In this document: positions 4,778 to 34,837 of the stretch, piece after piece
Numbering within the stretch: position 1 is the stretch's first letter
Layout: each line of letters starts with the position of its first letter
Source: Deltaproteobacteria bacterium
Lineage (GTDB): Bacteria > Myxococcota_C > UBA6777
Direction of reading: 5' to 3'
Length of the DNA: 39,849 nucleotides
Assembly: GCA_002731275.1 (NCBI GenBank)
Contig: PCBK01000008.1
Location: 9,646-49,494, forward strand
Notes under the pieces: model-generated
Told to the model about the DNA's origin: nothing
Database searches by the model: none
The model's input: the letters and a program-made list of their open reading frames with translations, nothing else
Position numbers and translations under genes: made by a program

Positions 4778-5317
4778 CTATTTGGGCAAAAACTTCCCCA
4801 GCCGGCTTTTTGCGAGACAAGCGCGCTGAAAATCTTCCACCGTGTTGGGACGCTTCTGCTTTAAAATGGAACCCAAATCGACGAACACGTCGTGAGGAAA
4901 TAACTCCTCTTGGGTATGTTTGAGGACGAGCTGCACAGCACAAAGCCACCCTCTCAAGCAAGCAAGAACACGTGCAGACTGTCCATCGACAAGGAACGAA
5001 AGAGTGATCTCCTGTTCGACGATGCTCTCGATCACGACGCCTCCGTGGTCTTCGCTTTGATAAAAACGCGCCGCCTCTCCCTCGAAGATGAGAATCCGCA
5101 CCACAAGGCTCCAAAAGAACCTCTCACCTTCACGATGGTGAAACCGAATAAAAGAGAGCCTCCCCTCAGGTGTCTCGACCGTAGCGTCGGGCTCTGGAGT
5201 GACCAACTCCATCGCTTTGTCGCCAGCACATGTCAACCGATGTGAGGCAAAAAACGCGTCCACATCTCGTAACAACGTCCACGCACAGGGCAAGACTTCT
5301 TCTTTGGCTTCGCTCAT
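4778..5317 (-). CDS. Hypothetical protein downstream of the sct genes, separated from them by the IscB element
   Basis: 179 residues, no signal peptide and no clear membrane helix. It is mixed alpha/beta in character with a hydrophobic C-terminal third. ATG at 5317 is preceded by a GAAAGG about ten bases upstream. The gene lies on the same strand as sctQ-fliO-sctR-sctS. If the IscB element (5340-6963) is removed in silico, its start falls roughly 43 bp after the sctS stop, so it was probably the next gene of that operon. Size and position would fit an export accessory or chaperone, but no family signature is visible and this is inference. A frame-shifted continuation down to 4491 exists but does not look coding. 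Confidence 0.6.
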   Translation of the reverse strand: MSEAKEEVLPCAWTLLRDVDAFFASHRLTCAGDKAMELVTPEPDATVETPEGRLSFIRFHHREGERFFWSLVVRILIFEGEAARFYQSEDHGGVVIESIVEQEITLSFLVDGQSARVLACLRGWLCAVQLVLKHTQEELFPHDVFVDLGSILKQKRPNTVEDFQRACLAKSRLGKFLPK

Positions 5318-5343
5318 CGCATAAAAACCTTTCGTACGCTTAA

Positions 5344-5383
5344 GGCGTGGAGACCCCCTTCTTCAGAGGGGGGAGGAAACGCC
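5344..5383 (-). repeat. Right-end (RE) subterminal hairpin of the IscB element
   Basis: Imperfect stem-loop: GGCGT (5344-5348) pairs with ACGCC (5379-5383), and CCCCCT (5354-5359) pairs with AGGGGG (5367-5372). Such G+C-rich hairpins at the 3' end of IS200/IS605-type elements are recognised by TnpA. The iscB TGA stop (5365-5363) falls inside the loop, so the coding sequence and transposition signal overlap. It could also act as a transcript terminator, although no T-tract follows. Confidence 0.7.
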
Positions 5384-6736
5384 CGTCCTTCTGTTGTAAG
5401 TGTATCCATCTATTTTTTGTAATGTTTTACAATATTTTGCTGCAATTCCTTGTGTCGTTTGTTTTCGCCCTTTGATGTTGAAATTTCCGCTACTTCGGAC
5501 TGCCACTCTACCTTCGTAACTTCCTTGCTTCTTTCCCTTCGTCACCACCGCTTTTACAATGTCTCCTGTCTGGAACCCACCCACTCGCTTTTGCTTCTTT
5601 TTTGCTCCGGTCCTCGGAAATCCAAAACGATCAACTCGACACATCTGCCGACTGCCCCTTCCCATCGCTTTGATTTCCAACACTTCGTGCTGTGTTTCTA
5701 CAAAAACCTGTCTTCCGCTATCACCGATACACATTGCATCAAGCCAATGTTCTTTCGCGTATCCTTGTTGGCTTCGGTTGAACTTCGTCTGCCCGCCGCT
5801 GCCTGTCTCCACCAAAAGACCTGTGCTTTCGAGTCTACGAAGAATCGCAGGCCGAGTCGAATTCACGACAGCTGCCGACCTCAAGGGCTTGTCGGCCTTT
5901 TGGCGAAGCTCCGGAAACCCAAATTCTTCGGCTGTTTGATTGCTCTTCTTTTGATTGCACTTCTCACAGGCCAATGTCAGATTGTCGACCCTGTTGGAGC
6001 CTCCCCTACTTTTGGGTGTCATGTGTTCTACCTGCAGAGGCACATTCTGTTTTCCACAGTATGCACACTTTCTGCCCCATTTATCGAGCAGATACTCTTT
6101 GACCTCGTAACCAAAGAGCGTTCCCTGTTGATATTCGATGCCTTCGACTTCGGGATTGACCAGCTTGTGTGTATCAAAACGGACGTTCTCAACCGAAAGA
6201 CCTGAGATGGGTACCAATGCCCGAAACTTCTGTGTCCAGGACGCGATGTTATCCACTCGACTTTGCAGTGAGGGGGCCAACCATCCCTGGGGTCTTCGTC
6301 GGTTCTCAAAGCGTGCTTTTCGGTAGCGGGTCTTTCGACCTCTACGGGAACGACGGATGTTTCTTCGCTTTTCAAGCGCTTTTTTGATCTGTTCTCCGCG
6401 ATGCTCGAGTTCAGCAGCGAAAATGCAACGTTTTCCACGTTGAAAGTCTGCGACGACAGCAATCCCCGTCTTTTTGGAGCCAGGATCGAACTTGAGGGCG
6501 GCAGGCTGTGTCTGGCCACCCTCACGGTCTTTGAGAATGATGGTGAAGGGAAATCTGCGATAGACAGCAGCACGGCCTTTTCGCATGAGTTCTCTGGCTC
6601 TGGCCGGATGGCAGGGCATCAGAGGCTGTTTGTTTTTGTCGAGGACAAGGACTCTGTTTTGGGCTTGTTGGGTATTTTTTTTCAATCGAGTTACCTCGCG
6701 TTCTGGGAGTCGTCCTTTGGGGAGTTCTCCTGTCAT
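5363..6736 (-). CDS. iscB: IscB RNA-guided HNH/RuvC endonuclease
   Basis: 457 residues from the ATG at 6736 (GAGGAG just upstream). IscB uses an omega RNA guide to cut double-stranded DNA and is the family from which Cas9 derives. Domains in order: PLMP domain (P38-L-M-P41); RuvC-I with Asp84 in FDPGSKKTG; arginine-rich bridge helix (about 124-149); RuvC-II with Glu183 in SVENVRF; HNH domain (about 217-266) with zinc-ligand pairs Cys224/Cys227 and Cys257/Cys260 and catalytic EH (Glu237-His238); RuvC-III with His330 and Asp333 in HWLDAMCIG; then a C-terminal target-interaction region. All key residues are present, so it looks catalytically intact. A longer frame up to 6841 runs into the RNA gene and is not needed. 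The ORF stop lies inside the right-end hairpin. Confidence 0.95.
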   Translation of the reverse strand: MTGELPKGRLPEREVTRLKKNTQQAQNRVLVLDKNKQPLMPCHPARARELMRKGRAAVYRRFPFTIILKDREGGQTQPAALKFDPGSKKTGIAVVADFQRGKRCIFAAELEHRGEQIKKALEKRRNIRRSRRGRKTRYRKARFENRRRPQGWLAPSLQSRVDNIASWTQKFRALVPISGLSVENVRFDTHKLVNPEVEGIEYQQGTLFGYEVKEYLLDKWGRKCAYCGKQNVPLQVEHMTPKSRGGSNRVDNLTLACEKCNQKKSNQTAEEFGFPELRQKADKPLRSAAVVNSTRPAILRRLESTGLLVETGSGGQTKFNRSQQGYAKEHWLDAMCIGDSGRQVFVETQHEVLEIKAMGRGSRQMCRVDRFGFPRTGAKKKQKRVGGFQTGDIVKAVVTKGKKQGSYEGRVAVRSSGNFNIKGRKQTTQGIAAKYCKTLQKIDGYTYNRRTGVSSPL

Positions 6737-6979
6737 GGTCTCCTCGCCAATGTTATGGAGCGGTTTTGATGCAGGTCGCACAGTTTCGACCTCCAAAAAA
6801 CATTTAACGACATGCCGCAGTGCCCAGGACTGGAGAAGCATCCAGGGGTGCCTATGTATTCGCTCCTAACGTAGTTTGAAATCCTCCTTTCGAGTATTCT
6901 CGCTCAGGCTGGTCAACATAGAGACTCTCTCAAGCCTCTCCCTTTAGGGGGAGGTTGTTGACCTGTCCTCTATCCCTGT
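6737..6979 (-). ncRNA. HEARO / omega RNA of IscB with predicted 16-nt guide
   Basis: The segment upstream of iscB has the blocks typical of HEARO RNAs. Read on the minus strand: a P1-like stem GGTCAACA (6963-6956) with TGTTGACC (6918-6911) enclosing a CCTCCCCC..GGGAGAGG hairpin; the conserved CTTGAGAGAG followed by CAGCCTGAG; CTACGTTAGGAGCGA; a GCACCCCTGG..CCAGTCC hairpin; GTCGTTAAATG; and a final GGCGAGGAGACC leading directly into the iscB ATG. In characterised IscB systems the guide is the about 16 nt immediately 5' of the scaffold, here ACAGGGATAGAGGACA (6979-6964), which is flanking host DNA just after sctS. Scaffold identity is based on remembered family motifs; the exact ends are inferred. 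Confidence 0.82.
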
Positions 6980-6983
6980 GTGG

Positions 6984-7250
6984 TCAGCGTATCAACGTTG
7001 GGAAGGTTGTGAGCAGCAGCTCCGTATAACGAATCAAGATGGCACCGATCCAGCCACCAAACACCATCAACGAACCAAACACCGCGACGATCTTGGGGAC
7101 AAAGGTCAATGTTTGTTCCTGGATCTGTGTGGTGGCCTGGAAGATCGAGATCATCAAGCCAACCATCATGCTGATGATGATGGGAGGACCGGAGGCGATC
7201 ATGACCAAAAGGAAGCCTTGGTTGGTCACCTGGATGACATATTCCTTCAT
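6984..7250 (-). CDS. sctS: Type III secretion export apparatus protein SctS (FliQ/YscS family)
   Basis: 88 residues, the usual length for this family, with two hydrophobic helices (about 15-35 and 53-76) joined by the conserved Q-A-x-T-Q-I-Q-E-Q-T-L-x-F-V-P-K loop. SctS forms part of the helical R5S4T1 export gate in the inner membrane with SctR and SctT. It lies 51 bp after sctR on the same strand. Its TGA is at 6986-6984, only about 20 bp from the IscB element. Loop sequence and partner genes favour the non-flagellar family over flagellar FliQ, but the two are hard to separate from one short protein. Confidence 0.88.
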   Translation of the reverse strand: MKEYVIQVTNQGFLLVMIASGPPIIISMMVGLMISIFQATTQIQEQTLTFVPKIVAVFGSLMVFGGWIGAILIRYTELLLTTFPTLIR

Positions 7251-7301: not shown

Positions 7302-8192
7302 TCATATGTAGCCGATGATCAGACCTCTTGTGATCAGATACCAGCCGTCGACGAGGACAAAGAGCAAGAGTTTAAAGGGTAGCGAAATCGTGGTGGGGGA
7401 GAGCATGTGCATCCCGAGCGCGAGGAGGATGTTCGCGACGACCATGTCCACGACGATAAAGGGCAAGAAGATCAAAAAGCCGATCTGGAAGGCTTCTTTT
7501 AGCTCCGAGATGACAAAGGCCGGGACGACAATGGTGAGGTCGCGACTGGTCACCCCCTTTCGCTGGTTTGGCTTGCGCAGCTGGAGGGCCAACTCGTAAA
7601 ACATCTTTCGATCTTTCATGTGGCTGTGCTTGATCAAAAAGCGACGGATCGGCTCTTTCGCCCGGAAAGCTGCGTTGACGAGCGTTTTGACACTGGCCCT
7701 GGAGAGTAGATTTTTCCCTTTGCCCATCTTCGTCGAGAGCAATTGGTCTGTCTCATCACGTATTTCGAGGCCGACGGGGACCATGACGTAGACCGTCAAG
7801 ATGATCGCGATCCCTGTGATGACCTGTGTCGGAGGGTTTTGCTGTGTTCCAAGCGCGCTACGTACGATCGAGAGGACGACGGCGATCTTGACGAACGAGG
7901 TCACCATAATCAACACAAACGGCAACAGGGCCATCGCGCCGAGGACGACTGTGAGCAGGATGGGGTTTCCTGCGACGCTGTCGCCAAAGTTGATCTCTCC
8001 TGTGGAGAGGCGACGTCCCTTTTGGGCGACGACGTCGCTGATGAAGAACACAAATGGAGCGACGAAGATGAAGAAGAGCAAGCACTTACGCCAGAAGCGC
8101 GCTTTGAGCCTCTCGTCCAACAGGTTACTTGGCGCAGGTGGGTTGTCTGCGGTGTCAGTCTTCTTGCGTCTGTGGAGCAGTCTTTTGACCAT
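7302..8192 (-). CDS. sctR: Type III secretion export apparatus protein SctR (FliP/YscR family)
   Basis: About 296 residues from the ATG at 8192, which has a GAGGT upstream; a GTG codon directly before it at 8195 is an alternative. After a basic N-terminus and a signal-like first hydrophobic segment comes the family signature P-F-V-L-I-M-x-T-S-F-x-K-I with S-A-L-G-T-Q-Q-N-P-P. A soluble loop follows, then the C-terminal helices with S-P-T-T-I-S-L-P-F-K and L-L-L-F-V-L-V-D-G-W. The last motif in this form is characteristic of SctR/YscR rather than FliP. SctR pentamers form the core of the export gate. It overlaps the 3' end of the FliO-like gene by 38 bp, implying translational coupling. Confidence 0.92.
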   Translation of the reverse strand: MVKRLLHRRKKTDTADNPPAPSNLLDERLKARFWRKCLLFFIFVAPFVFFISDVVAQKGRRLSTGEINFGDSVAGNPILLTVVLGAMALLPFVLIMVTSFVKIAVVLSIVRSALGTQQNPPTQVITGIAIILTVYVMVPVGLEIRDETDQLLSTKMGKGKNLLSRASVKTLVNAAFRAKEPIRRFLIKHSHMKDRKMFYELALQLRKPNQRKGVTSRDLTIVVPAFVISELKEAFQIGFLIFLPFIVVDMVVANILLALGMHMLSPTTISLPFKLLLFVLVDGWYLITRGLIIGYI

Positions 8193-9015
8193 CACTGATT
8201 ACCTCAAACTTGGTAGGGATCGCGCTTGGGGACGCTGTGTCGGGCGTTTGTGTTTCTGGTTTTGTTTGCATTCGCTGCCAAAAAGGCCGGGGCTGTGGTT
8301 GGCCCTCTTTCCACGCTTCGACCTCTGCGCTGTCGAGCTGGTGAAGCATGGTGACGCCTTGTTCGTGCGTGGCGATCAAGAAGTATTGACTCCCTGCACC
8401 CACGACCATCAGACCTTTTTGGGGTTCGAGTGAGATGCGATCTTCGATGCTGAGTAACCCCTGGTTGACCTGTCCGGGGAACCCTGCCTGTTTGGAGATC
8501 CAACGCAAGACAGCGTAGATCATGACGACGATGATCCCAAGCGCGAAGAGCATCCCAAACATTTGCACCCATAGCAAGGAGCCACTAGAGAAGAGTTTCA
8601 TCTTGGGGAGCTTGCGAAGGGGTTTGGGCGCCGATTTGCGCAGGGCCAGATCCTCTCCCTGTTTTTTGCGGAAAGAGGGAGGGGGTTCACCATAAGGATC
8701 GGCGAGGCGTTTGATCGTCTCCTTCAATGTCATCGCGCGAGGGGTCGGAGGGAGTGTGCCCTGTGTGGGTCTTGTCGCAGCTCGACCGCGCAAAGACGCA
8801 GCCGAACGTCTCGATGTTGGCGCCTTGGCCATTCGCTTGCTCACATGGGGAGGGAGTGTGCGTGCGGCTTTTTGGGGAGGGCGTGTTGCTGGGCGCTTTG
8901 TTGGCGGTGGTGTTGCGTTGGCTTTTGGTGAATACGCGCTGAACAGGCAAAGCGCGAGGCCCAGCCATACCAGAGAGAGAGGGGAGCGTCCTGTGTGTGC
9001 GTTGAAAGAAATCAC
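8155..9015 (-). CDS. fliO: FliO-like export-gate assembly protein
   Basis: 286 residues with a GTG start at 9015 that overlaps the sctQ stop as GTGA (9015-9012). An N-terminal hydrophobic stretch (about 14-33) resembles a signal peptide. Then follow a long Pro/Arg/Ala-rich low-complexity linker, one strong membrane helix (about 145-168), and a compact domain with L-S-I-E-D-R-I-S-L and a H-E-Q-G-V-T-M-L strand. That TM plus beta-barrel module is typical of FliO, which helps assemble the FliP ring in flagella. Virulence-type T3SSs usually lack FliO, so its presence between sctQ and sctR is notable. The C-terminal 50 residues are again low complexity. Family assignment is good for the core only. 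Confidence 0.68.
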   Translation of the reverse strand: MISFNAHTGRSPLSLVWLGLALCLFSAYSPKANATPPPTKRPATRPPQKAARTLPPHVSKRMAKAPTSRRSAASLRGRAATRPTQGTLPPTPRAMTLKETIKRLADPYGEPPPSFRKKQGEDLALRKSAPKPLRKLPKMKLFSSGSLLWVQMFGMLFALGIIVVMIYAVLRWISKQAGFPGQVNQGLLSIEDRISLEPQKGLMVVGAGSQYFLIATHEQGVTMLHQLDSAEVEAWKEGQPQPRPFWQRMQTKPETQTPDTASPSAIPTKFEVISDGQKTAPQTQED

Positions 9016-10304
9016 TTGTGCAACTCGATGATGCGAATGCCGAGCTGTCCTTCGATCTCGACGAGTTCGCCTTTTCCGAGGAGCTGCCCGTTGACGACGA
9101 GATCGAGTGGGGCGTAAGGAGAGCGGTGCAGCTCCATCACCTGCCCAACGCGCAAATGCATGATATCACGTGCACGGCATTCGACGCGTCCCATCTCGAC
9201 GATCAAAGGCACTGGGACATCACTTAAGACGGGCGCCATCTCTTCTACGTTGTCACCCTCTTCCTCAATCGGTTCGAGTTCTTCGTAATCTTCTTCGTAG
9301 CCTTGCTCATGCTCATCCATACTATATTCGCTCCTGTCGAGAACGCCGTTGACTTCTGGTTCGGCGATATTGATAATTTCACTCAATTGTATGCTGCTGC
9401 GTGGAGAGGAGGGAGTGTCCATGATCCGGCAGCGAAATCCCACACGGGCACGTGGCGAAAATTGAAGCGTCGCTTCTCCTCCCAAGAGACCCTCTGTATG
9501 AAGTCCTGCACTACACTGTTGTAGCAACACGATATCATCTTCTTCAAGTCCGTTGACCTCTGCTTCGCTCAATGCAACCATTCCGATCCGTACACTCGCG
9601 TGAAGGGCAGGGTCCCCGATGCGGTGAAAGCGCTGTCTGATAAAGTCTGGAGGGGGTTGCTGTCCGGGAGGACTTAACGCCATATGTTCCCGCAGAATAC
9701 TCGCTGGAATATAGACGCGCAAGAAGCCGACTTGTCCGATCAAACCGAGTCGTATACCTCGGTGATAAAAACGCTCCGTTGTGGGGATGCTGTCTTGGAT
9801 CTCGTCAAAAGAGAAGGCGATCTTGTCGATACGTAGCTCTCGATCGTGGTCATTGCCCCACGCGAGCTGGATCTGTTGCATGGATTTGAGCAAAAAGAAG
9901 GCGAAGACACCACGTTCGACGTCGGAGAGGGTGCGCGCTGCATGTCGGACATCACCTTGACCTCCGAGCGCTCGATCGACCATCACGCTGATGAGTGTGG
10001 GGTCGAGTTCGAGGATGATCCTTGACTCCATCGGTAACAGCGCGATCTGGACCAACAGTGTTGGCGCGAGACAAAAGCGCGCGAGCTGCTCTGTCGTGAG
10101 AAATTGTTCTTGGGCCGACCAGTCCCAAGCGATCTGGGTTTTGATGTAGCCTTCAAGTGGGCGAAGCGCGTCACTGACCAACCCCGCCGAAAAGATCTCC
10201 GGGGGAAAGGTGTGCGCCAGCGCGTCAAAAAATTCTAGCTCCGCCCTGTCGATGATTGGCAACATCTCAAAGCGATAGGGACGGATCGTTACGTTTCCAT
10301 ACAT
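9012..10304 (-). CDS. sctQ: Type III secretion C-ring protein SctQ (FliM/FliN-like, two SPOA domains)
   Basis: 430 residues, start ATG 10304. The N-terminal two-thirds resembles the FliM/SctQ middle region (conserved L-x-L-x-x-x-L-I-S-V-M-V-D-R-A-L-G-G). A first SPOA-like domain lies at about 235-295. A very acidic linker follows (about 325-360, many Glu in runs), then a clear C-terminal SPOA domain (about 365-430: V-P-L-I-V-E-M-G-R, L-R-V-G-Q-V, N-G-Q-L-L-G-K-G-E-L-V). SctQ builds the cytosolic sorting platform or C-ring that loads substrates onto the export gate. It is the first gene of the sctQ-fliO-sctR-sctS run. The 150 bp between it and the divergent amidase gene must hold promoters for both; no clear -10/-35 pair was fixed. 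Confidence 0.88.
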   Translation of the reverse strand: MYGNVTIRPYRFEMLPIIDRAELEFFDALAHTFPPEIFSAGLVSDALRPLEGYIKTQIAWDWSAQEQFLTTEQLARFCLAPTLLVQIALLPMESRIILELDPTLISVMVDRALGGQGDVRHAARTLSDVERGVFAFFLLKSMQQIQLAWGNDHDRELRIDKIAFSFDEIQDSIPTTERFYHRGIRLGLIGQVGFLRVYIPASILREHMALSPPGQQPPPDFIRQRFHRIGDPALHASVRIGMVALSEAEVNGLEEDDIVLLQQCSAGLHTEGLLGGEATLQFSPRARVGFRCRIMDTPSSPRSSIQLSEIINIAEPEVNGVLDRSEYSMDEHEQGYEEDYEELEPIEEEGDNVEEMAPVLSDVPVPLIVEMGRVECRARDIMHLRVGQVMELHRSPYAPLDLVVNGQLLGKGELVEIEGQLGIRIIELHK

Positions 10305-25591: not shown

Positions 25592-27142
25592 ATGAGATGT
25601 CTGTATGTTTGGTGTCTTCGTTTTTTTGCGTTCATTGTTTTGTGGACTGTTGGGTGCGGTGGTGACAACAATCACAATCAACACACCATCCCCAAAGGAT
25701 GTGAGTTTTGTGTCGAACGTTGTCTCACTCGTGATGATCCCGCAGTGGGTTCGTGTGTGGCTTGCTTGAACGATCAACAATGTCAGGATCAAACACAGCC
25801 TTCAGCAGTGTGTGTCATCACAACACATTCTTGTACGTGTGGAACGGATCGCGACTGTGCGACGGACAAAGTGTGTGCGGGCGCCAAAGGTTGCGTTGAG
25901 TGCAAAGCAGACACGGATTGCAAAGCGCTCAACAGAGCGTTCTGTGTAGAGAACGTTTGTCGAGCTTGTCAATCCGGGCAGACGAGAGAGTGCAAAGTCA
26001 GTGGGATCTGTGGTGCTGGGATGCAAACATGCCAAACAGATGGTTCATGGGGGGAGTGTAAGGCTCCTGATGGTGTTGCTTGTACAGGACAGCAGCTGTG
26101 TGTTGAAAACAAATGTGTGTGTCGACCTGGAACAGAAGATTGTGGTGGAGCGTGTGTTCTCATCGACTCAAACGCAAAGCATTGTGGGAAATGTGACAAC
26201 GTTTGTGGAGGTGGGAAGCTGTGTGCAGGGGGCAGTTGTGTTGCGAGTTGCCCTGTTGAGCTTCCCGATACTTGTGGTGATGGGTGTGTTGATCTGACAA
26301 ACGATGACCAACATTGTGGAAAGTGCGGTGTGAACTGCGATACAGGACAGATGTGTGTCAACGGAAAGTGCTCGTGCCCACCTGGACAGACTCTCTGTGA
26401 TGGTCATTGTGTCGATATTCAGAACGACTCCCTCCACTGTGGAGCGTGTGGTGCGTCTTGTCAGGCTGGCTTACTTTGTGTGGATGGAAAGTGCGCAGTG
26501 CGTTGTCCAAATGATCGAACGGATACCTGTGGGAGCGCATGTGTCGATCTGCAACACTCCTTTTTTCACTGTGGGGCGTGTGGTCGCGCTTGCGTTCCTG
26601 GACAATCTTGTGTCAAGGGACAGTGTGCGTGTCCTGAAGGTCTGGAGGTCTGCCTCGGTCAATGTACCAACACCAAGACAAATGCACGTCACTGTGGTTC
26701 TTGTGGCAATGTCTGTGGAGAAGGCATGGTGTGTGATGCAGGTGCTTGTGTCAAAGCTTGCGGCACTGCCGGTACACAGGATTGCAAGAGAAGCTGTGTG
26801 GACACGAAGACGTCATTGTTTCACTGTGGTGTGTGTGGAACACGCTGTCAGAGTGGACAGATTTGTAAGGAGGGGAGCTGTGGATGTGAAGATGGATTCG
26901 ATAGCTGCGATGGTTTGTGTGTTGATTTGAAACGCAACAAGCTACATTGTGGTGCGTGTGGTAACACCTGCTCTGGGACGGATGTGTGCGCAGATGGAAA
27001 GTGTGTGTCTGTTTGTCCTTCTCATCTTCCGGACCTTTGTGGGGGCGGATGTGTCGACACACGTGTCGATCATTTGCACTGTGGTGGGTGTGGACAAGCC
27101 TGTGAGACTGGGAAGACGTGCAAAGAGAGTAAGTGTTCTTAG
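25592..27142 (+). CDS. Cysteine-rich lipoprotein with eight Stig1-like repeats
   Basis: 516 residues. A signal sequence ends in T-V-G-C with Cys22 and Gly-Gly following, a relaxed lipobox. An N-terminal section with C-x-x-D-x-D-C motifs is followed by eight tandem units of about 40 residues. Each has G-x-C-V-D-x-x-x-x-x-x-H-C-G-x-C-G-x-x-C-x-x-G-x-x-C-x-x-G-x-C. This is the Stig1-like pattern, known in plants and abundant in secreted proteins of Myxococcota. Cysteine density is extreme and even in number per repeat, pointing to disulfide cross-linking outside the cytoplasm. Its stop codon overlaps by three bases the stop of the convergent metalloprotease gene (27139-29838). Binding or structural role is inferred only. 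Confidence 0.88.
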   Translation: MRCLYVWCLRFFAFIVLWTVGCGGDNNHNQHTIPKGCEFCVERCLTRDDPAVGSCVACLNDQQCQDQTQPSAVCVITTHSCTCGTDRDCATDKVCAGAKGCVECKADTDCKALNRAFCVENVCRACQSGQTRECKVSGICGAGMQTCQTDGSWGECKAPDGVACTGQQLCVENKCVCRPGTEDCGGACVLIDSNAKHCGKCDNVCGGGKLCAGGSCVASCPVELPDTCGDGCVDLTNDDQHCGKCGVNCDTGQMCVNGKCSCPPGQTLCDGHCVDIQNDSLHCGACGASCQAGLLCVDGKCAVRCPNDRTDTCGSACVDLQHSFFHCGACGRACVPGQSCVKGQCACPEGLEVCLGQCTNTKTNARHCGSCGNVCGEGMVCDAGACVKACGTAGTQDCKRSCVDTKTSLFHCGVCGTRCQSGQICKEGSCGCEDGFDSCDGLCVDLKRNKLHCGACGNTCSGTDVCADGKCVSVCPSHLPDLCGGGCVDTRVDHLHCGGCGQACETGKTCKESKCS

Positions 27143-29838
27143 TCATAACGTCTTGAGCGTCGTGCAAGTAAGATAAAGAAGAGTAGAAGAAAGAGGGGCG
27201 TAGAGGAAGGTGGTGTTGTAGATTGACAGCCACAGCCTGGGACGCACTCTTCGCGGCAATTTTTGCCGTCAGCATCGCAGCGTCGAACAAAACCTTGAGG
27301 ACACAGATAGCGTCTGTCGAGGCAAGCATTTTGAAAACAGACTTGTGATGTGTGGCAGGCACAATCAGCCGCACATGAGAAGCAGTTCTCGCCGGCGTTG
27401 AGCTCACAGATTCCATTGCCACATCTGAGATCTTTACAGACACCTTCTGTACATTGTTGGTTGGCTTTGCAGGCACAATCTTTTGCACATGTCTCGCAGT
27501 TCTCGCTGTGCGCTGGGTTACAGACACCATCGCCACATGCGACGATACATTGCCCCGTCACTTCGCAAAATTCTTCTTGTGAACAGCCACAGTCGCTTTT
27601 GCATGTTTGGCAATTTTCGCCATTTTGTGGATGACAGACCCCATCGCCACAGGTAAGACAGACCCCATTCTCGCACGTATCGCCGTTGCATGAACAATCT
27701 TTGGCGCAAGTGCTGCAATTCTCGCCTTGTTGGGTCTCACAGACGCCATTGCCACATAATTGACAGGTGCCCTCCACGCAGGCTTTGGGCGCGGTGCATG
27801 CGCAATCTTGTGCGCAAAGAGCGCAGTTCTCATCAGGATCACAGACACCATTGCCGCAACTTAGACAGGCACCGTTTGTACAGGATTGGGTGGCTGGACA
27901 CTTACAATCTTGTGCACATGATTGACAGTTCTCGCCTCCGTTTGCCTCGCACTTTCCGTCACCACAGACCGCTCTACAAGAAGGGTCGTTACAGATGCAT
28001 ACACCGCCTTTGGTTTTTTCATTCCAGATCTGACAGGTGTATCCACTTTTGCACGGGGCTTGAGGGGTGCGCTCGTTGCACTGGCAGACCCTCTGTCCAT
28101 TGCCGACAGGTGTACACATGCCTCCATTTGCGCAGTTGGGGTCTTTTTCACACGTTGGTATACACGTCCCTCCCCAACTTCCTGGAAAGCTCGGAATGCA
28201 CACGAGCCCGTCTTTACACTGGTCTTTTGTGTTGCACGTCTCATAGGCATTTTGCGAAGGTGCGAGGCGACATACGTAGATATAGGAACCATATTGTCGG
28301 CAGGTCGTTCCTGTTGGGCAACTCGTCGCGTTGTTGGGATCACACGGGAGGATACACGTCCCACCATTTGAGCTGCGTAGGCAGGTGTAGCCTTTTTGAC
28401 AGGGGACGTTCTCATTGCAGTTGTCGAAGTTTCCGCCCCCCTGTGCGTTTTGGCAGAGTCGATTTCGGCAGATCTTTCCGCTCGGACAGTCTGTGTTTTC
28501 CGAGCATGGGCAGAAGAACTCATCGGCAGGTATACAAAGTCGACCTTCTGTGGTGGGTCGGCATTGGTATCCAGTGGGACAAAAAAAGTCACTTGTACAA
28601 GGTTGTAGACATCTCTTTTCGTCTGGACCAATGGAAAAGCATTTGTTGTTATTGCCACACTCTGCGTGTGTTTTGCAGGTCGTGTTACAGGCTTTATCAT
28701 GTGATATGTTTTTGGCCCGACAGACCTTGTCGATACACGTTGTCCCTGATGCGCAGTCCTTGTCCTGTGTGCAGGTGGTTGTTGTGCAGCTTCCGGCGAT
28801 TGGGACACACATCTTTTTGTTGTTGTGTGTGACACAGCGAAAGTCTTCGGGGCAGCAATTGTCTGTGCCTTGGCAGGTTGGGAGACATCGGAAGGTGTCA
28901 TCTGTCTGGACACAAGCTTCATTCCCTTGACAATTGGGAGCGGCTGGGTTGCATGTGCCACAGAGCGTTTGTGTCTTAGGCGCGTTGGCTGTGCAGAGAA
29001 ATTGGCTACATTGATAGCACGTGCCGCATTCTTTGTCTGTTGTGCAGGCTCCTGTGCGTTTTGGGTACATCACACAAATGCCTTGAATGTCGTCTGTGCC
29101 AAGCTTCATCGCTTCACCTGCAGGGCGGGCGCGGTAGTACATGATGGCGCTCTGAAGGTGGGAGTGTGCGAAGCCGATAGAGTGACCGCTTTCGTGTGTG
29201 TTGACCCCTTGCAGGTCAAACTTCTCTTTGAGTTTGCCTTGTATCCCCCAGGAGTAGCGAGGGTTGTAGAACAGATCTCCGTCGACAAATTGGCCTTTTT
29301 CATCTGTCTTTGGTGAGGAGAACGCGAGCGCGCCAGTGGCACCGAGTTGATCCCACTCGGCTTCTGAGGGGAGGTAGATCGTGATGCTGTTGTCGAAGTA
29401 GCTCGGTGGGGCTGTGGTGGTGCCGAGGTATTTGTGCGAGAATGTGCTACATGGTTGCTTCCAGGCATCCCACCCGGCGATCATGGCCTTCTCGATGTCT
29501 TTCTCTGTGAGGGATGTGTATCCACTTTTCCCTGCCATGCCGTTGGTGTTGAGTTTCCATGTGACTGGAAGTTTGGACCAGCGTTGGATATGTGCCCCTT
29601 CGCAATAGTTGTTGGTGATACAATCCTGTGTGAGCGTCGAGGGATCACAACAAGCGCCTCCACCTCCGGAGTTTCCGATGGTTGCACGGCAAGGCGTTCC
29701 GACGCTTTTGCAGCGTCCTTTGGTGAGCAGGGGAAACCACGCATGTGCTGGGAGATGCCATATAAAGAACAAACACATCGACAACAGGATGACAGCCTTA
29801 CGTGTATGCTTTCCCAAAGATGACCTGTACCAAACCAT
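27139..29838 (-). CDS. Matrixin-like zinc metalloprotease with cysteine-rich repeats and MYXO-CTERM tail
   Basis: 899 residues from the ATG at 29838, which has GGAGG eight bases upstream; the earlier in-frame ATG at 29853 overlaps that site. A signal peptide (about 1-33, ending A-H-A) precedes a catalytic domain with the metzincin motif H-E-S-G-H-S-I-G-F-A-H (His215, Glu216, His219, His225) and a nearby S-A-I-M-Y-Y Met-turn. Then come many disulfide-type modules, including six C-G-(N/D)-G-x-C..E-N-C-x-x-C-x-x-D-C-x-C units. The end is C-G-C-Q-S-T followed by a hydrophobic helix and R-R-S-R-R, a MYXO-CTERM surface-sorting tail. It is probably an anchored extracellular protease. It is 55 bp downstream of the Lon-WD40 gene end on the same strand only in the sense of reverse order: this gene lies first in transcription relative to none, and has its own start. 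Confidence 0.9.
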   Translation of the reverse strand: MVWYRSSLGKHTRKAVILLSMCLFFIWHLPAHAWFPLLTKGRCKSVGTPCRATIGNSGGGGACCDPSTLTQDCITNNYCEGAHIQRWSKLPVTWKLNTNGMAGKSGYTSLTEKDIEKAMIAGWDAWKQPCSTFSHKYLGTTTAPPSYFDNSITIYLPSEAEWDQLGATGALAFSSPKTDEKGQFVDGDLFYNPRYSWGIQGKLKEKFDLQGVNTHESGHSIGFAHSHLQSAIMYYRARPAGEAMKLGTDDIQGICVMYPKRTGACTTDKECGTCYQCSQFLCTANAPKTQTLCGTCNPAAPNCQGNEACVQTDDTFRCLPTCQGTDNCCPEDFRCVTHNNKKMCVPIAGSCTTTTCTQDKDCASGTTCIDKVCRAKNISHDKACNTTCKTHAECGNNNKCFSIGPDEKRCLQPCTSDFFCPTGYQCRPTTEGRLCIPADEFFCPCSENTDCPSGKICRNRLCQNAQGGGNFDNCNENVPCQKGYTCLRSSNGGTCILPCDPNNATSCPTGTTCRQYGSYIYVCRLAPSQNAYETCNTKDQCKDGLVCIPSFPGSWGGTCIPTCEKDPNCANGGMCTPVGNGQRVCQCNERTPQAPCKSGYTCQIWNEKTKGGVCICNDPSCRAVCGDGKCEANGGENCQSCAQDCKCPATQSCTNGACLSCGNGVCDPDENCALCAQDCACTAPKACVEGTCQLCGNGVCETQQGENCSTCAKDCSCNGDTCENGVCLTCGDGVCHPQNGENCQTCKSDCGCSQEEFCEVTGQCIVACGDGVCNPAHSENCETCAKDCACKANQQCTEGVCKDLRCGNGICELNAGENCFSCAADCACHTSQVCFQNACLDRRYLCPQGFVRRCDADGKNCREECVPGCGCQSTTPPSSTPLFLLLFFILLARRSRRYD

Positions 29839-29893
29839 CAAACATTCCTCCAAACATTCCTCTTTTTCTGTATTCTTTTTTCGTTTACCGACC

Positions 29894-32228: not shown

Positions 32229-34184
32229 TTAGGAGCGCTTGGGAGCGCAACGGACACGCTGGAAGGTGAAGAATAAAAGCATCGCGATGATCGGAAGCCA
32301 GGGGATGTCCGATGGTGATGGTGTGCTGCTACAGAGACAGCCTCCGAGCTTGACTTCGAGCTGATCTTCCCCAAAGGCTGGCTCACATGTCTTACTGTTA
32401 TCATCGGCTTTCAGGCACGTTGTCCACTTTCCCTCGCGACAGAGCTGCACACCTTCGCCACATGTCCCTTCACAGGCTTTTTGTAGATCTTCATCCGTCT
32501 TGCCATCGCAGTCATTGTCCAACCCATCACAGATCTCTTCCGTTTTTTGAGGTGGCGTGGCCGCAGAGCAGGTAATCCCGCTTTGATCGTCGTTGCAGAT
32601 ATATTTCCCAAATTGCCGACATGAACCCTCACCTCTGTGGCAGAGTTTGTCTTTGAGTGGCCACAACTCGTCGATTTTTCCGTTACAGTCGTTGTCTTTG
32701 CCATCACAGATCTCTTTGTTTTCTCCTGTCCCTGCGCAATAGACGCCTGTTTTGTCAGCTTTGCACTGGTAGATCCCTTGGACACAAGAGGTCTGGCATG
32801 TGACAGGGGTTTTGCCGAGTTTATCTTTCCAGGGGTCGTCGATCACGCCGTTGCAGTCGTTGTCTTTTCCATCACAGATCTCTTTGATGACCTTGGGAGC
32901 GTTACACGCGCTGAGTTTGCCGTTGGTACAGAATTGCTTTCCTTCGTGACAGTCGTTTTTACAGGCGATACTGAGGGTGTTATCTTTCTTTGTGTCTGGT
33001 GCGTTGTCGATGAAGCCATCACAGTCATCATCTTTACCGTTACACGTTTCCTGTGTTTTGGGGCGACTCTGACAGGCTTGCCAGCGCCCAGCCGAGCAAG
33101 ATTGTGTCCCACACTCACCACAATTACGTTGGAGCGCTTCATCGATCTTTCCATCACAGTCGTCGTCGATGTTGTTGCACGTCTCTACTTTTGCTTTGCC
33201 CACACACGCGCCCCATTTTCCGAAGCGGCAGGTCTGGACACCATCGCCGCAATTGTCTTTGCAAGGTCGTTTGAGAGTGTAGGGTTGTTGATCTCCTGGG
33301 ATATTGTCGATAAATCCGTCACAATCATCATCCTTGTAGTTACAGATCTCTTTGGTGGGGGGGGCATTTGGTGTACACGCTCCCCACTTGCCGTCCGCAC
33401 AGTATTGGTGCGCTGCACAGCGACCAAATGGACAGGCTTGAAGCAGAGGTTTATCACTCCCTTTGACGTTGTCGATCTTTCCGTCACAGTCATCGTCGAG
33501 ACCGTTGCAGACTTCCGAGTTGGTGGTCTTTGTCGAGATCTGTTGCAAGGCCTTGTTGAAGTCTGTCAGTGTTGAGACGACGTGGTAAAGACGTGATGAA
33601 CCTTGGGAGGTCCCACCCCACTTGGCCAGATCGTTGAGACAGACAGGGTTTACGGAGCTACCAAAGCCAATCACGAAGGTCTTGATGTCGTAGACTTCCT
33701 GACCGACAGGGAGCTTGCGGAGCGCGGTTGTCTCTTTCGTTGGACAGGCGTCTGTTGGGGCACCATCGGTGATCAACAGAATGTAATGGGGGCGTTGTCG
33801 TTGTGTGTCTTGTGCGATCGCCTTCTTGAGATACGTGGTCGCTGTGGTCATCGCCAGCTGCATATAGGTCTCTCCGCCTGTTTGTAAGGATGAGAGTGTG
33901 CTCTGGAATGCACTCAAACTCGCGCCAAAGTCGAGCTGGTGTTGGGGAGCATCCGAAAACGTCATCAAGCCAAAGCGGATCTTTTGATCGAACTGTTGGA
34001 CCATCTGCAAAATCCCAGCCTTCGCGTTGTCCCACTTTTGGGATTTTTGCATGCTACCAGACTTATCTAACAGCAAGAGGATATTAGGTGTCGGTGTCTG
34101 ACAGGTGTTGGATTGTGCAAACCCATACGAAGAAAAAAGGCTGATGAACAAAACTGTGATGATCGATATGTATGTCGTTTTCAT
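32229..34184 (-). CDS. Secreted vWA-domain protein with seven MopE-like D-x-D-x-D repeats and MYXO-CTERM-like tail
   Basis: 651 residues from the ATG at 34184 (AAGGAG nine bases upstream). A signal peptide (about 1-24, ending F-A-Q) precedes a von Willebrand A domain with an intact MIDAS (D-K-S-G-S, T in G-G-E-T-Y, D in I-T-D-G-A). After it come seven repeats of the form C-(N/D)-G-x-D-(D/N)-D-C-(D/N)-G-x-I-D, the putative metal-binding motif of MopE-like proteins. Each is separated by a cysteine-bearing stretch with G-x-C-x-x-G-x-W. The C-terminus G-G-C-L-C-S-S-T-P, hydrophobic helix and basic end resemble MYXO-CTERM. It is probably a surface-anchored, calcium-dependent adhesion or scaffold protein; the ligand is unknown. 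Confidence 0.9.
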   Translation of the reverse strand: MKTTYISIITVLFISLFSSYGFAQSNTCQTPTPNILLLLDKSGSMQKSQKWDNAKAGILQMVQQFDQKIRFGLMTFSDAPQHQLDFGASLSAFQSTLSSLQTGGETYMQLAMTTATTYLKKAIAQDTQRQRPHYILLITDGAPTDACPTKETTALRKLPVGQEVYDIKTFVIGFGSSVNPVCLNDLAKWGGTSQGSSRLYHVVSTLTDFNKALQQISTKTTNSEVCNGLDDDCDGKIDNVKGSDKPLLQACPFGRCAAHQYCADGKWGACTPNAPPTKEICNYKDDDCDGFIDNIPGDQQPYTLKRPCKDNCGDGVQTCRFGKWGACVGKAKVETCNNIDDDCDGKIDEALQRNCGECGTQSCSAGRWQACQSRPKTQETCNGKDDDCDGFIDNAPDTKKDNTLSIACKNDCHEGKQFCTNGKLSACNAPKVIKEICDGKDNDCNGVIDDPWKDKLGKTPVTCQTSCVQGIYQCKADKTGVYCAGTGENKEICDGKDNDCNGKIDELWPLKDKLCHRGEGSCRQFGKYICNDDQSGITCSAATPPQKTEEICDGLDNDCDGKTDEDLQKACEGTCGEGVQLCREGKWTTCLKADDNSKTCEPAFGEDQLEVKLGGCLCSSTPSPSDIPWLPIIAMLLFFTFQRVRCAPKRS

Positions 34185-34837
34185 GGCTGGTTCTCCTTCA
34201 CCTCTCCGAGTGTGGGAAAAATGCATGTCTTTCGGATAGAGGGTTGTCTTTTCCACTTATCAAGAAGCGTGCCGTCTTGTATCCCTATATTTCCCCTCAA
34301 ATCGAACCTACAAGTCACTATCTAGAGGTATTTTTTGACACATCTATGACGAGTGAAGCTCTCTTTTACCACACATTTGACTTTTTGCGTTGGTGTGATT
34401 GTTGAATGATTTTATGTGTTTATTCTTGCGTGGGTGGAAATGTACCTATACAGATTTCATATAGACTCACTACGCGTAGAGTTGACTCTTTCGCCAAGTA
34501 TGTTCGAGCTTGAGATCGGGGAAGAGAGCCTATGATACGGGGAGAACGGTGTTGTGATGGTGTCCTTTTTGGAGGGCGAGAATGACCCAGGCCGTTGGAT
34601 AGTATGAGCTTATATAATGGATAGAGCTCTCTGTGGGATGAGGAGGCTTCTCTTGCATAACGATGATGGTGTGATGTGTATGTGTTTGATTTTTATGGTG
34701 TGTTGTGCGTTGGTGTTCTGTGGTATGTCTCTTGAAAAGGGGGAGAGTATCAAGCCAATTTTGCTCTCATGATGAGGGCCTCTATTAGAAACATGCTCAC
34801 TGGATACAAACGACATACGCTGTCAGGAGAAGGAAAC
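34185..34837. other. Intergenic region, about 650 bp, divergent promoters
   Basis: Lies between the divergent vWA/MopE-like gene and the PKD-like lipoprotein gene. It is A+T-rich around 34330-34420. A TATAAT hexamer at 34613-34618 lacks a matching -35. A 10-bp palindrome CTACGCGTAG occurs near 34473. No hairpin terminator, repeat array or convincing ORF was seen. An in-frame ATG at 34769 could extend the lipoprotein but would place 23 residues before its signal peptide. Confidence 0.5.

What the first reader, a model, noticed from the sequence alone, without database searches (positions are those of the whole stretch)
5340..6963. Intact IscB element inserted inside a type III secretion gene run
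A complete IscB (all RuvC and HNH catalytic residues present) with its HEARO/omega RNA and right-end hairpin sits co-directionally between sctS and the next gene. Removing it leaves about 43 bp between the two genes, so the element seems to have landed in an intergenic gap of an export operon. It could be co-transcribed with the sct genes and may now affect downstream expression.
Basis: partly seen in the sequence, partly recalled or inferred. Interest (0 to 1): 0.7.

Follow-up and report, generated by a model that had tools for sequence, protein, structure and literature searches.

The report
IscB element docked on start codon
This is a complete IscB mobile element, a relative of the ancestor of Cas9, lying exactly between a gene's ribosome-binding site and its start codon in a secretion-gene cluster; the same docking on ATGA/GTGA start codons recurs across many hosts and is shown by clean empty sites in sister species.

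Summary
Confirmed, with three corrections. (1) A full HEARO/omega RNA (120 bits) and an intact IscB are present. A 99.8% identical second copy in the same genome sets the ends at 5318-6962 (1,645 bp), not 5340-6963. (2) The element does not sit in a neutral gap. It lies between a Shine-Dalgarno-like GAGGA and an ATGA whose ATG is the start codon of the next gene. (3) The next gene in the window (179 aa) is not the native neighbour. Relatives have sctS-sctT-sctU. Here sctT-sctU lie to the right of the second copy, on contig C35. The flanks of the two copies have therefore been exchanged, by recombination or by an assembly misjoin; the data cannot say which. Docking on start codons is general: all six right ends in this genome, and 34 of 46 elements from many hosts, against 9-20% for random ATGA/GTGA sites. 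Sister species G002 is empty at 10 comparable G004 sites, with ATGA/GTGA at the junction in 9, and 8 of those start long ORFs. Many right ends carry a Shine-Dalgarno-like motif, but not all. The element is a new member of a known kind; the start-codon rule is the interesting part.

The parts
5318..6962 (-). complete IscB/HEARO element, 1,645 bp, no target-site duplication
   Evidence: 99.8% identical second copy at G000:C35 (L008 8412-10056) shares exactly this stretch plus ATGA
6732..6962 (-). HEARO (omega) RNA; left end at 6962 (GTCAAC)
   Evidence: RF02033, 120 bits, E=2e-24, model 1-211
5363..6736 (-). iscB coding sequence, 457 aa, likely start ATG 6736; the frame stays open upstream to 6841 but that part lies in the RNA
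   Evidence: Pfam RRXRR, HNH; alignment of four copies; PDB relatives TbaIscB, OgeuIscB
5344..5384 (-). right-end hairpin GGGCGTTTCCTCCCCCC...GGGGGTCTCCACGCC
   Evidence: same two-tier hairpin at the right ends of copies in many hosts
5328..5333 (-). GAAAGG, Shine-Dalgarno-like motif inside the right end, 10 nt before the start codon
   Evidence: sequence; AAAGG or GGAGG in all right ends of this genome
5314..5317 (-). ATGA at the right junction: inferred target and TAM, with ATG the start codon of the downstream gene
   Evidence: pairwise boundary; empty sites with ATGA/GTGA at the junction in sister species
6963..6983 (-). left flank CCACACAGGGATAGAGGACAG: holds the displaced Shine-Dalgarno-like GAGGA; its 3' part is the expected omega RNA guide (inferred)
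   Evidence: sequence; same spacing in joined flanks
4778..5317 (-). downstream gene, 179 aa, no Pfam family, no relative in 60 genomes; starts at the junction; not the native neighbour of sctS
   Evidence: sctT found beside the C35 copy
6984..7250 (-). sctS / FliQ
   Evidence: Bac_export_3 E=7.8e-29
7302..8195 (-). sctR / FliP
   Evidence: FliP E=2e-68
8155..9015 (-). FliO-like
   Evidence: PF04347 E=1.4e-9
9012..10304 (-). SctQ/FliM-FliN-like C-ring protein
   Evidence: FliMN_C E=3.7e-20

Best explanation
An autonomous IscB/HEARO element, without its own TnpA, inserted immediately 5' of the ATGA that begins sctT, between its Shine-Dalgarno-like leader and its ATG, in an sctQ-fliO-sctR-sctS-sctT-sctU cluster (shown by ends, gene order and empty sites of the same family). 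The left flank becomes the guide at the 5' end of the omega RNA and the retained NTGA is the TAM, so IscB-omega RNA would cut the empty site and favour return or retention of the element (inferred from the family's biochemistry). Because insertion splits leader from start codon, the right end must supply translation initiation for the downstream gene; here it carries GAAAGG 10 nt before the ATG, and iscB ends 48 nt before it, so the host gene probably stays translated as part of the element's mRNA (inferred). Later the flanks of two near-identical copies were exchanged, by recombination or by a misjoin in assembly, so that sctS and sctT now lie on different contigs.
For: HEARO and IscB. Ends. 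Native order sctS-sctT-sctU in three same-family relatives; sctT and sctU beside the C35 copy, with the sctT N-terminus aligning from the junction ATG. Six of six right ends in this genome abut start codons of ORFs of 179-794 aa. Survey: 34 of 46 start-like against 8.8% of random ATGA/GTGA sites and 19.6% of non-genic ones; 23 of 29 when boundaries come from pairwise divergence. Empty sites in G002 for ten G004 insertions; nine have ATGA/GTGA at the junction (two after a 1-4 nt offset) and eight of these open ORFs of 257-500 aa, including tpiA (by eye). Shine-Dalgarno-like core in 28 of 49 unique right ends against 6.4 in shuffles. IsrB, a close relative, has an NTGA TAM: PMC9581776.
Against: No direct empty sctS-sctT site at nucleotide level in a close relative; family members are too diverged between the genes. 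Right ends in the same-family genomes G002/G004 lack a Shine-Dalgarno motif (CCTTAAAAACG|ATGA), as do about a third of the surveyed ones, so a built-in ribosome-binding site is not universal. Some insertions are not at start codons (L170, L239/L262). Junctions in the survey were curated by hand with NTGA in mind, and related right ends are not independent. No activity, TAM or expression was measured.
Confidence: 0.8

Rival explanations
1. The window's sctS-IscB-179 aa junction is an assembly misjoin at a 1.65-kb near-identical repeat; the true chromosome has sctS-IscB-sctT and another IscB in front of the 179-aa gene.
For: Gene order in relatives. Contigs C108, C111 and C119 of the same assembly break inside IscB copies, so the assembler struggled with them. 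The two copies are identical over the 990 bp nearest the right end, so short reads could not phase them. A similar flank exchange appears between G002 (L294) and G004 (L296/L297) copies.
Against: Real recombination between repeats gives the same picture. GC skew relative to the element has the same sign in three of the four arms and is near zero in the fourth, so it does not discriminate.
Confidence: 0.55
2. Real homologous recombination between two IscB copies (for example a symmetric inversion) exchanged their flanks.
For: 99.8% identical 1.65-kb repeats are good substrates; three of the four arms have the same skew sign relative to the element, as expected for copies on opposite replichores.
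Against: No independent support; splitting an export operon would need each half to find a promoter.
Confidence: 0.4
3. The start-codon pattern only reflects a short NTGA target plus purifying selection against insertions inside genes, with no adaptation of the right end to translation.
For: Interior insertions exist (L170, L239/L262); right ends without a Shine-Dalgarno motif exist.
Against: Start-like sites are 19.6% of non-genic ATGA/GTGA sites but 34 of 43 non-interior insertions (p about 7e-17). Different families carry different Shine-Dalgarno cores at similar spacing, and seven long open frames end in a stop codon formed at the junction.
Confidence: 0.35
4. Vertically fixed, domesticated iscB serving the secretion cluster.
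For: Intact ORF inside the cluster.
Against: Absent from the sct cluster of all relatives examined; near-identical copy elsewhere.
Confidence: 0.03

Closest known systems
IscB / OMEGA elements (e.g. OgeuIscB, TbaIscB, OrufIscB)
   Same: PLMP, RuvC and HNH architecture, HEARO/omega RNA at the left end, about 460-aa protein
   Different: Here the target is read from natural empty sites as NTGA at start codons; OrufIscB uses NTAAA (PMC13180657)
HEARO elements (Rfam RF02033; HEARO nucleases of PMC9755519)
   Same: Full covariance match; only a few reported HEARO nucleases have TnpA nearby, and none was found in this copy
   Different: From memory, the original HEARO description reported integration at ATGA/GTGA; I could not read it. 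The start-codon and Shine-Dalgarno aspects are what this work adds to that recollection
IsrB (DtIsrB)
   Same: TAM NTGA, with ATGA and TTGA cleaved (PMC9581776), matching the junction tetranucleotide here
   Different: IsrB lacks HNH; this protein has it
IS200/IS605 elements with TnpB
   Same: Subterminal hairpins, no target-site duplication, and a guide taken from the flank with the TAM being the insertion motif (PMC11870625)
   Different: No Y1 transposase in the element; the conserved target tetranucleotide lies on the right-hand side

Membership tests
IscB (OMEGA nuclease) | RuvC (RRXRR) and HNH domains with catalytic motifs, PLMP motif | tested here: met
IscB (OMEGA nuclease) | adjacent omega/HEARO RNA upstream of the ORF | tested here: met
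IscB (OMEGA nuclease) | RNA-guided cleavage with TAM | not testable with these tools
   TAM inferred from natural sites only
IS200/IS605-type transposon | Y1 TnpA transposase in the element | tested here: not met
   none in 5318-6962; four Y1_Tnp genes elsewhere in the genome without matching ends nearby
IS200/IS605-type transposon | hairpin end, no target-site duplication, fixed target motif | tested here: met
Type III secretion / flagellar export cluster | SctQ, R, S, T, U genes in order | tested here: met
   in relatives; in this genome split at IscB between C13 and C35
Type III secretion / flagellar export cluster | non-flagellar rather than flagellar | tested here: inconclusive
   no flagellin found, but a FliO-like gene is present; genome 94.65% complete

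The most novel reading that the evidence does not exclude
IscB/HEARO elements are start-codon-docking elements. Their NTGA TAM and target is at once a start codon and, through the embedded TGA, a stop codon. They insert between Shine-Dalgarno and start codon, and they keep the host gene translated either with a Shine-Dalgarno motif carried in the right end or by running iscB into the junction so that the target supplies a stop/start overlap. This would let them dock on essential genes such as tpiA, fusA or hisD.
Probability: 0.5. Interest if true: 0.65.

Novelty: new member of a known kind. Interest (0 to 1): 0.45.

Why it matters
It ties three separate facts together: the NTGA TAM of this nuclease group, the HEARO insertion site, and translation start codons. 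That gives a simple, testable account of how a transposase-poor element can settle in front of essential genes without killing the host. It also warns that metagenome assemblies can exchange gene neighbourhoods at IscB repeats, which matters for anyone reading operons or natural guides from such contigs.

Tried and rejected
Search for the 179-aa downstream gene in 60 genomes: no relative. Searches with the GGDEF-type neighbour and the zinc-ribbon neighbour to test the native adjacency of the exchanged flanks: family-wide paralogues, uninformative. GC skew to separate misjoin from inversion: not decisive. A second empty copy of the sctS site in the same genome: none exact; the filled site itself is among the best partial matches. 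Automatic right-end finder: too strict and sometimes wrong, replaced by pairwise boundaries and hand curation. Matching Y1 transposase ends to the element: nothing. The primary papers on IscB (2021) and HEARO (2009) are not in the library.

Full report
What is there. The window's minus strand carries, in reading order, a SctQ/FliM-like gene (10304-9012), a FliO-like gene (9015-8155), sctR (8195-7302), sctS (7250-6984), then an IscB element and a 179-aa gene (5317-4778). Rfam gives one hit in the whole window at the curated threshold: HEARO RF02033 at 6962-6732, 120 bits, complete model. The protein has Pfam RRXRR and HNH, aligns with three other copies of the same genome through the PLMP, RuvC and HNH motifs, and its solved relatives include TbaIscB and OgeuIscB.

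Ends of the element. The same genome (G000, 10.75 Mb, 200 contigs; the window is C13:9646-49494) has seven HEARO matches, five over the cut-off. One, on contig C35, is a 99.8% identical copy (three differences, at window 6731, 6596 and 6308). Identity starts at 6962 and stops after ...AAAGGTTTTTATGCG|ATGA. The element is therefore 5318-6962, 1,645 bp, with ATGA (5317-5314) at the right junction and no duplication.

The junction is a start codon. The ATG of that ATGA is the start of the 179-aa ORF, and the 21-nt leader left behind the sctS stop codon, CCACACAGGGATAGAGGACAG, has a Shine-Dalgarno-like GAGGA just before the insertion point. All six right ends found in this genome abut the start codon of a long ORF: 179, 280 (sctT), 182, 794, 437 and 257 aa.

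The neighbours were exchanged. In three relatives of the same family, sctS is followed directly by sctT and sctU. In this genome the gene to the right of the C35 copy is sctT, followed by sctU, and its N-terminus (MTEIAKALEGINMSQG...) lines up by eye, without a gap, with that of relatives (MEELSRIVNNLNLSEP...) from the junction ATG. The native site was thus sctS-leader|ATGA-sctT. Contigs C108, C111 and C119 break inside IscB copies, so a misjoin is plausible, and recombination is equally compatible; GC skew does not decide. A like exchange is seen between same-genus genomes: G002 L294 and G004 L296 share the right flank but not the left, and the left flank of L294 is found in G004 on another contig, L297.

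Generality. IscB relatives from Blastocatellia, Nitrospiraceae, cyanobacteria and viral contigs, and HEARO copies of eleven of those genomes, show the same two-tier right-end hairpin followed by ATGA or GTGA. I curated 57 right junctions. In 34 of 46 with both flanks, the NTG opens an ORF of at least 60 aa and the joined left flank has an in-frame stop within 40 codons. Random ATGA/GTGA sites in the same flanks do so in 8.8% of cases, and non-genic ones coincide with gene starts in 19.6%. Using only junctions whose boundary came from pairwise divergence, 23 of 29 qualify. The curation was by eye and looked for NTGA, so the share of ATGA among the 57 is partly by construction; the start-codon excess and the pairwise subset are the sounder numbers. 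Examples by reading frame (my identification, not a database search) are an elongation factor G (L169), a histidinol dehydrogenase (L202) and an ABC ATPase (L172).

Empty sites. G002 and G004 are of one genus and carry 7 and 16 HEARO matches (the first listing gives all matches at E up to 0.001). Left flanks of eleven G004 insertions were searched in G002. Ten have an orthologous place without the element there. At the insertion point G002 has ATGA exactly in seven, ATGA after a 4-nt repeat difference in one, GTGA after one base in one, and ATGG in one. Eight of the nine ATGA/GTGA sites open ORFs of 257-500 aa, one of them triosephosphate isomerase (MTSRKALIAGNWKMF, by eye). The ninth lies inside a gene. 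Several have clear Shine-Dalgarno sequences just before the junction (AAGGAGGAACTTCG|ATGA, GGAGGATGGAGAGGC|ATGA). This shows at base level that elements of this family go in between leader and start codon and that the NTGA lies directly to the right. Two G002 insertions looked up in G004 are less clean: one reads ACGA where the filled site has ATGA and is inside a gene, and one has extra sequence.

How it probably works. Shown: docking site, ends, orientation. From the literature: IsrB, a close relative, needs an NTGA TAM on the 3' side (PMC9581776); for the TnpB analogue the guide records the flank, the TAM equals the insertion motif, and cutting of the empty site drives retention and spread (PMC11870625). 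Inferred: IscB here does the same with the left flank as guide and NTGA as TAM. Who moves the element is open; it has no transposase, and four Y1 transposases elsewhere in the genome show no matching ends.

Effect on the host gene. Splitting leader from start codon should weaken or silence the gene unless the right end replaces the leader. In the window the right end carries GAAAGG 10 nt before the ATG. Over 49 unique right ends, 28 hold a four-base Shine-Dalgarno core at a suitable distance against 6.4 in shuffles, and mean pairing energy with the anti-Shine-Dalgarno is -5.74 against -2.87 kcal/mol. In seven of the 57 an open frame of at least 250 codons (IscB where the protein was aligned) ends with a stop codon formed at the junction, which would couple its translation to the host gene. 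Against this, right ends of G002/G004 and many in Microcoleaceae lack such a motif. I regard a carried ribosome-binding site as likely for the window element and common, but not a rule.

Novelty. The element is an ordinary new member of the IscB/HEARO kind. That HEARO inserts at ATGA/GTGA is, from memory, already reported; I could not open that paper. I found no paper in the library linking IscB with start codons as insertion sites or with Shine-Dalgarno sequences, but the library lacks most subscription journals.

Noticed in passing
L165, L170, L176, L178, L179, L180, L192, L194, L196, L199, L207, L209, L162 (G061, G062, G070): HEARO-only elements of about 370-540 nt without iscB, with the same left and right ends and the same ATGA junctions: non-autonomous derivatives, apparently numerous in some cyanobacteria.
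   Followed up: partly
L294 (G002:C172), L296 (G004:C14), L297 (G004:C211): Two IscB copies in same-genus genomes share the right flank but have different left flanks; another case of flank exchange or misjoin at an IscB copy.
   Followed up: partly
L052, L202, L087, L088, L089, L105, C119 copy (L010:9427): An open frame of at least 250 codons has no stop codon of its own inside the element and ends with a TGA formed at the junction with the target, giving a stop/start overlap with the host gene.
   Followed up: partly
window 10304-6984: Secretion/flagellar export cluster with a FliO-like gene in a genome where no flagellin was found.
   Followed up: partly
L013 6768 (G000:C84): Degenerate HEARO copy (30.7 bits) with an intact left end, a decayed relic.
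   Followed up: no
G002/L292 versus G004/L290: Insertion inside a coding sequence 14 codons after its start, where the filled site reads ATGA and the empty one ACGA; the filled gene could restart in frame at the junction ATG.
   Followed up: no
window 25592-27142, 27139-29853 and 32229-34256: Large cysteine-rich repeat proteins, two of them ending in a hydrophobic stretch and a basic tail as in surface-sorted proteins (by eye).
   Followed up: no
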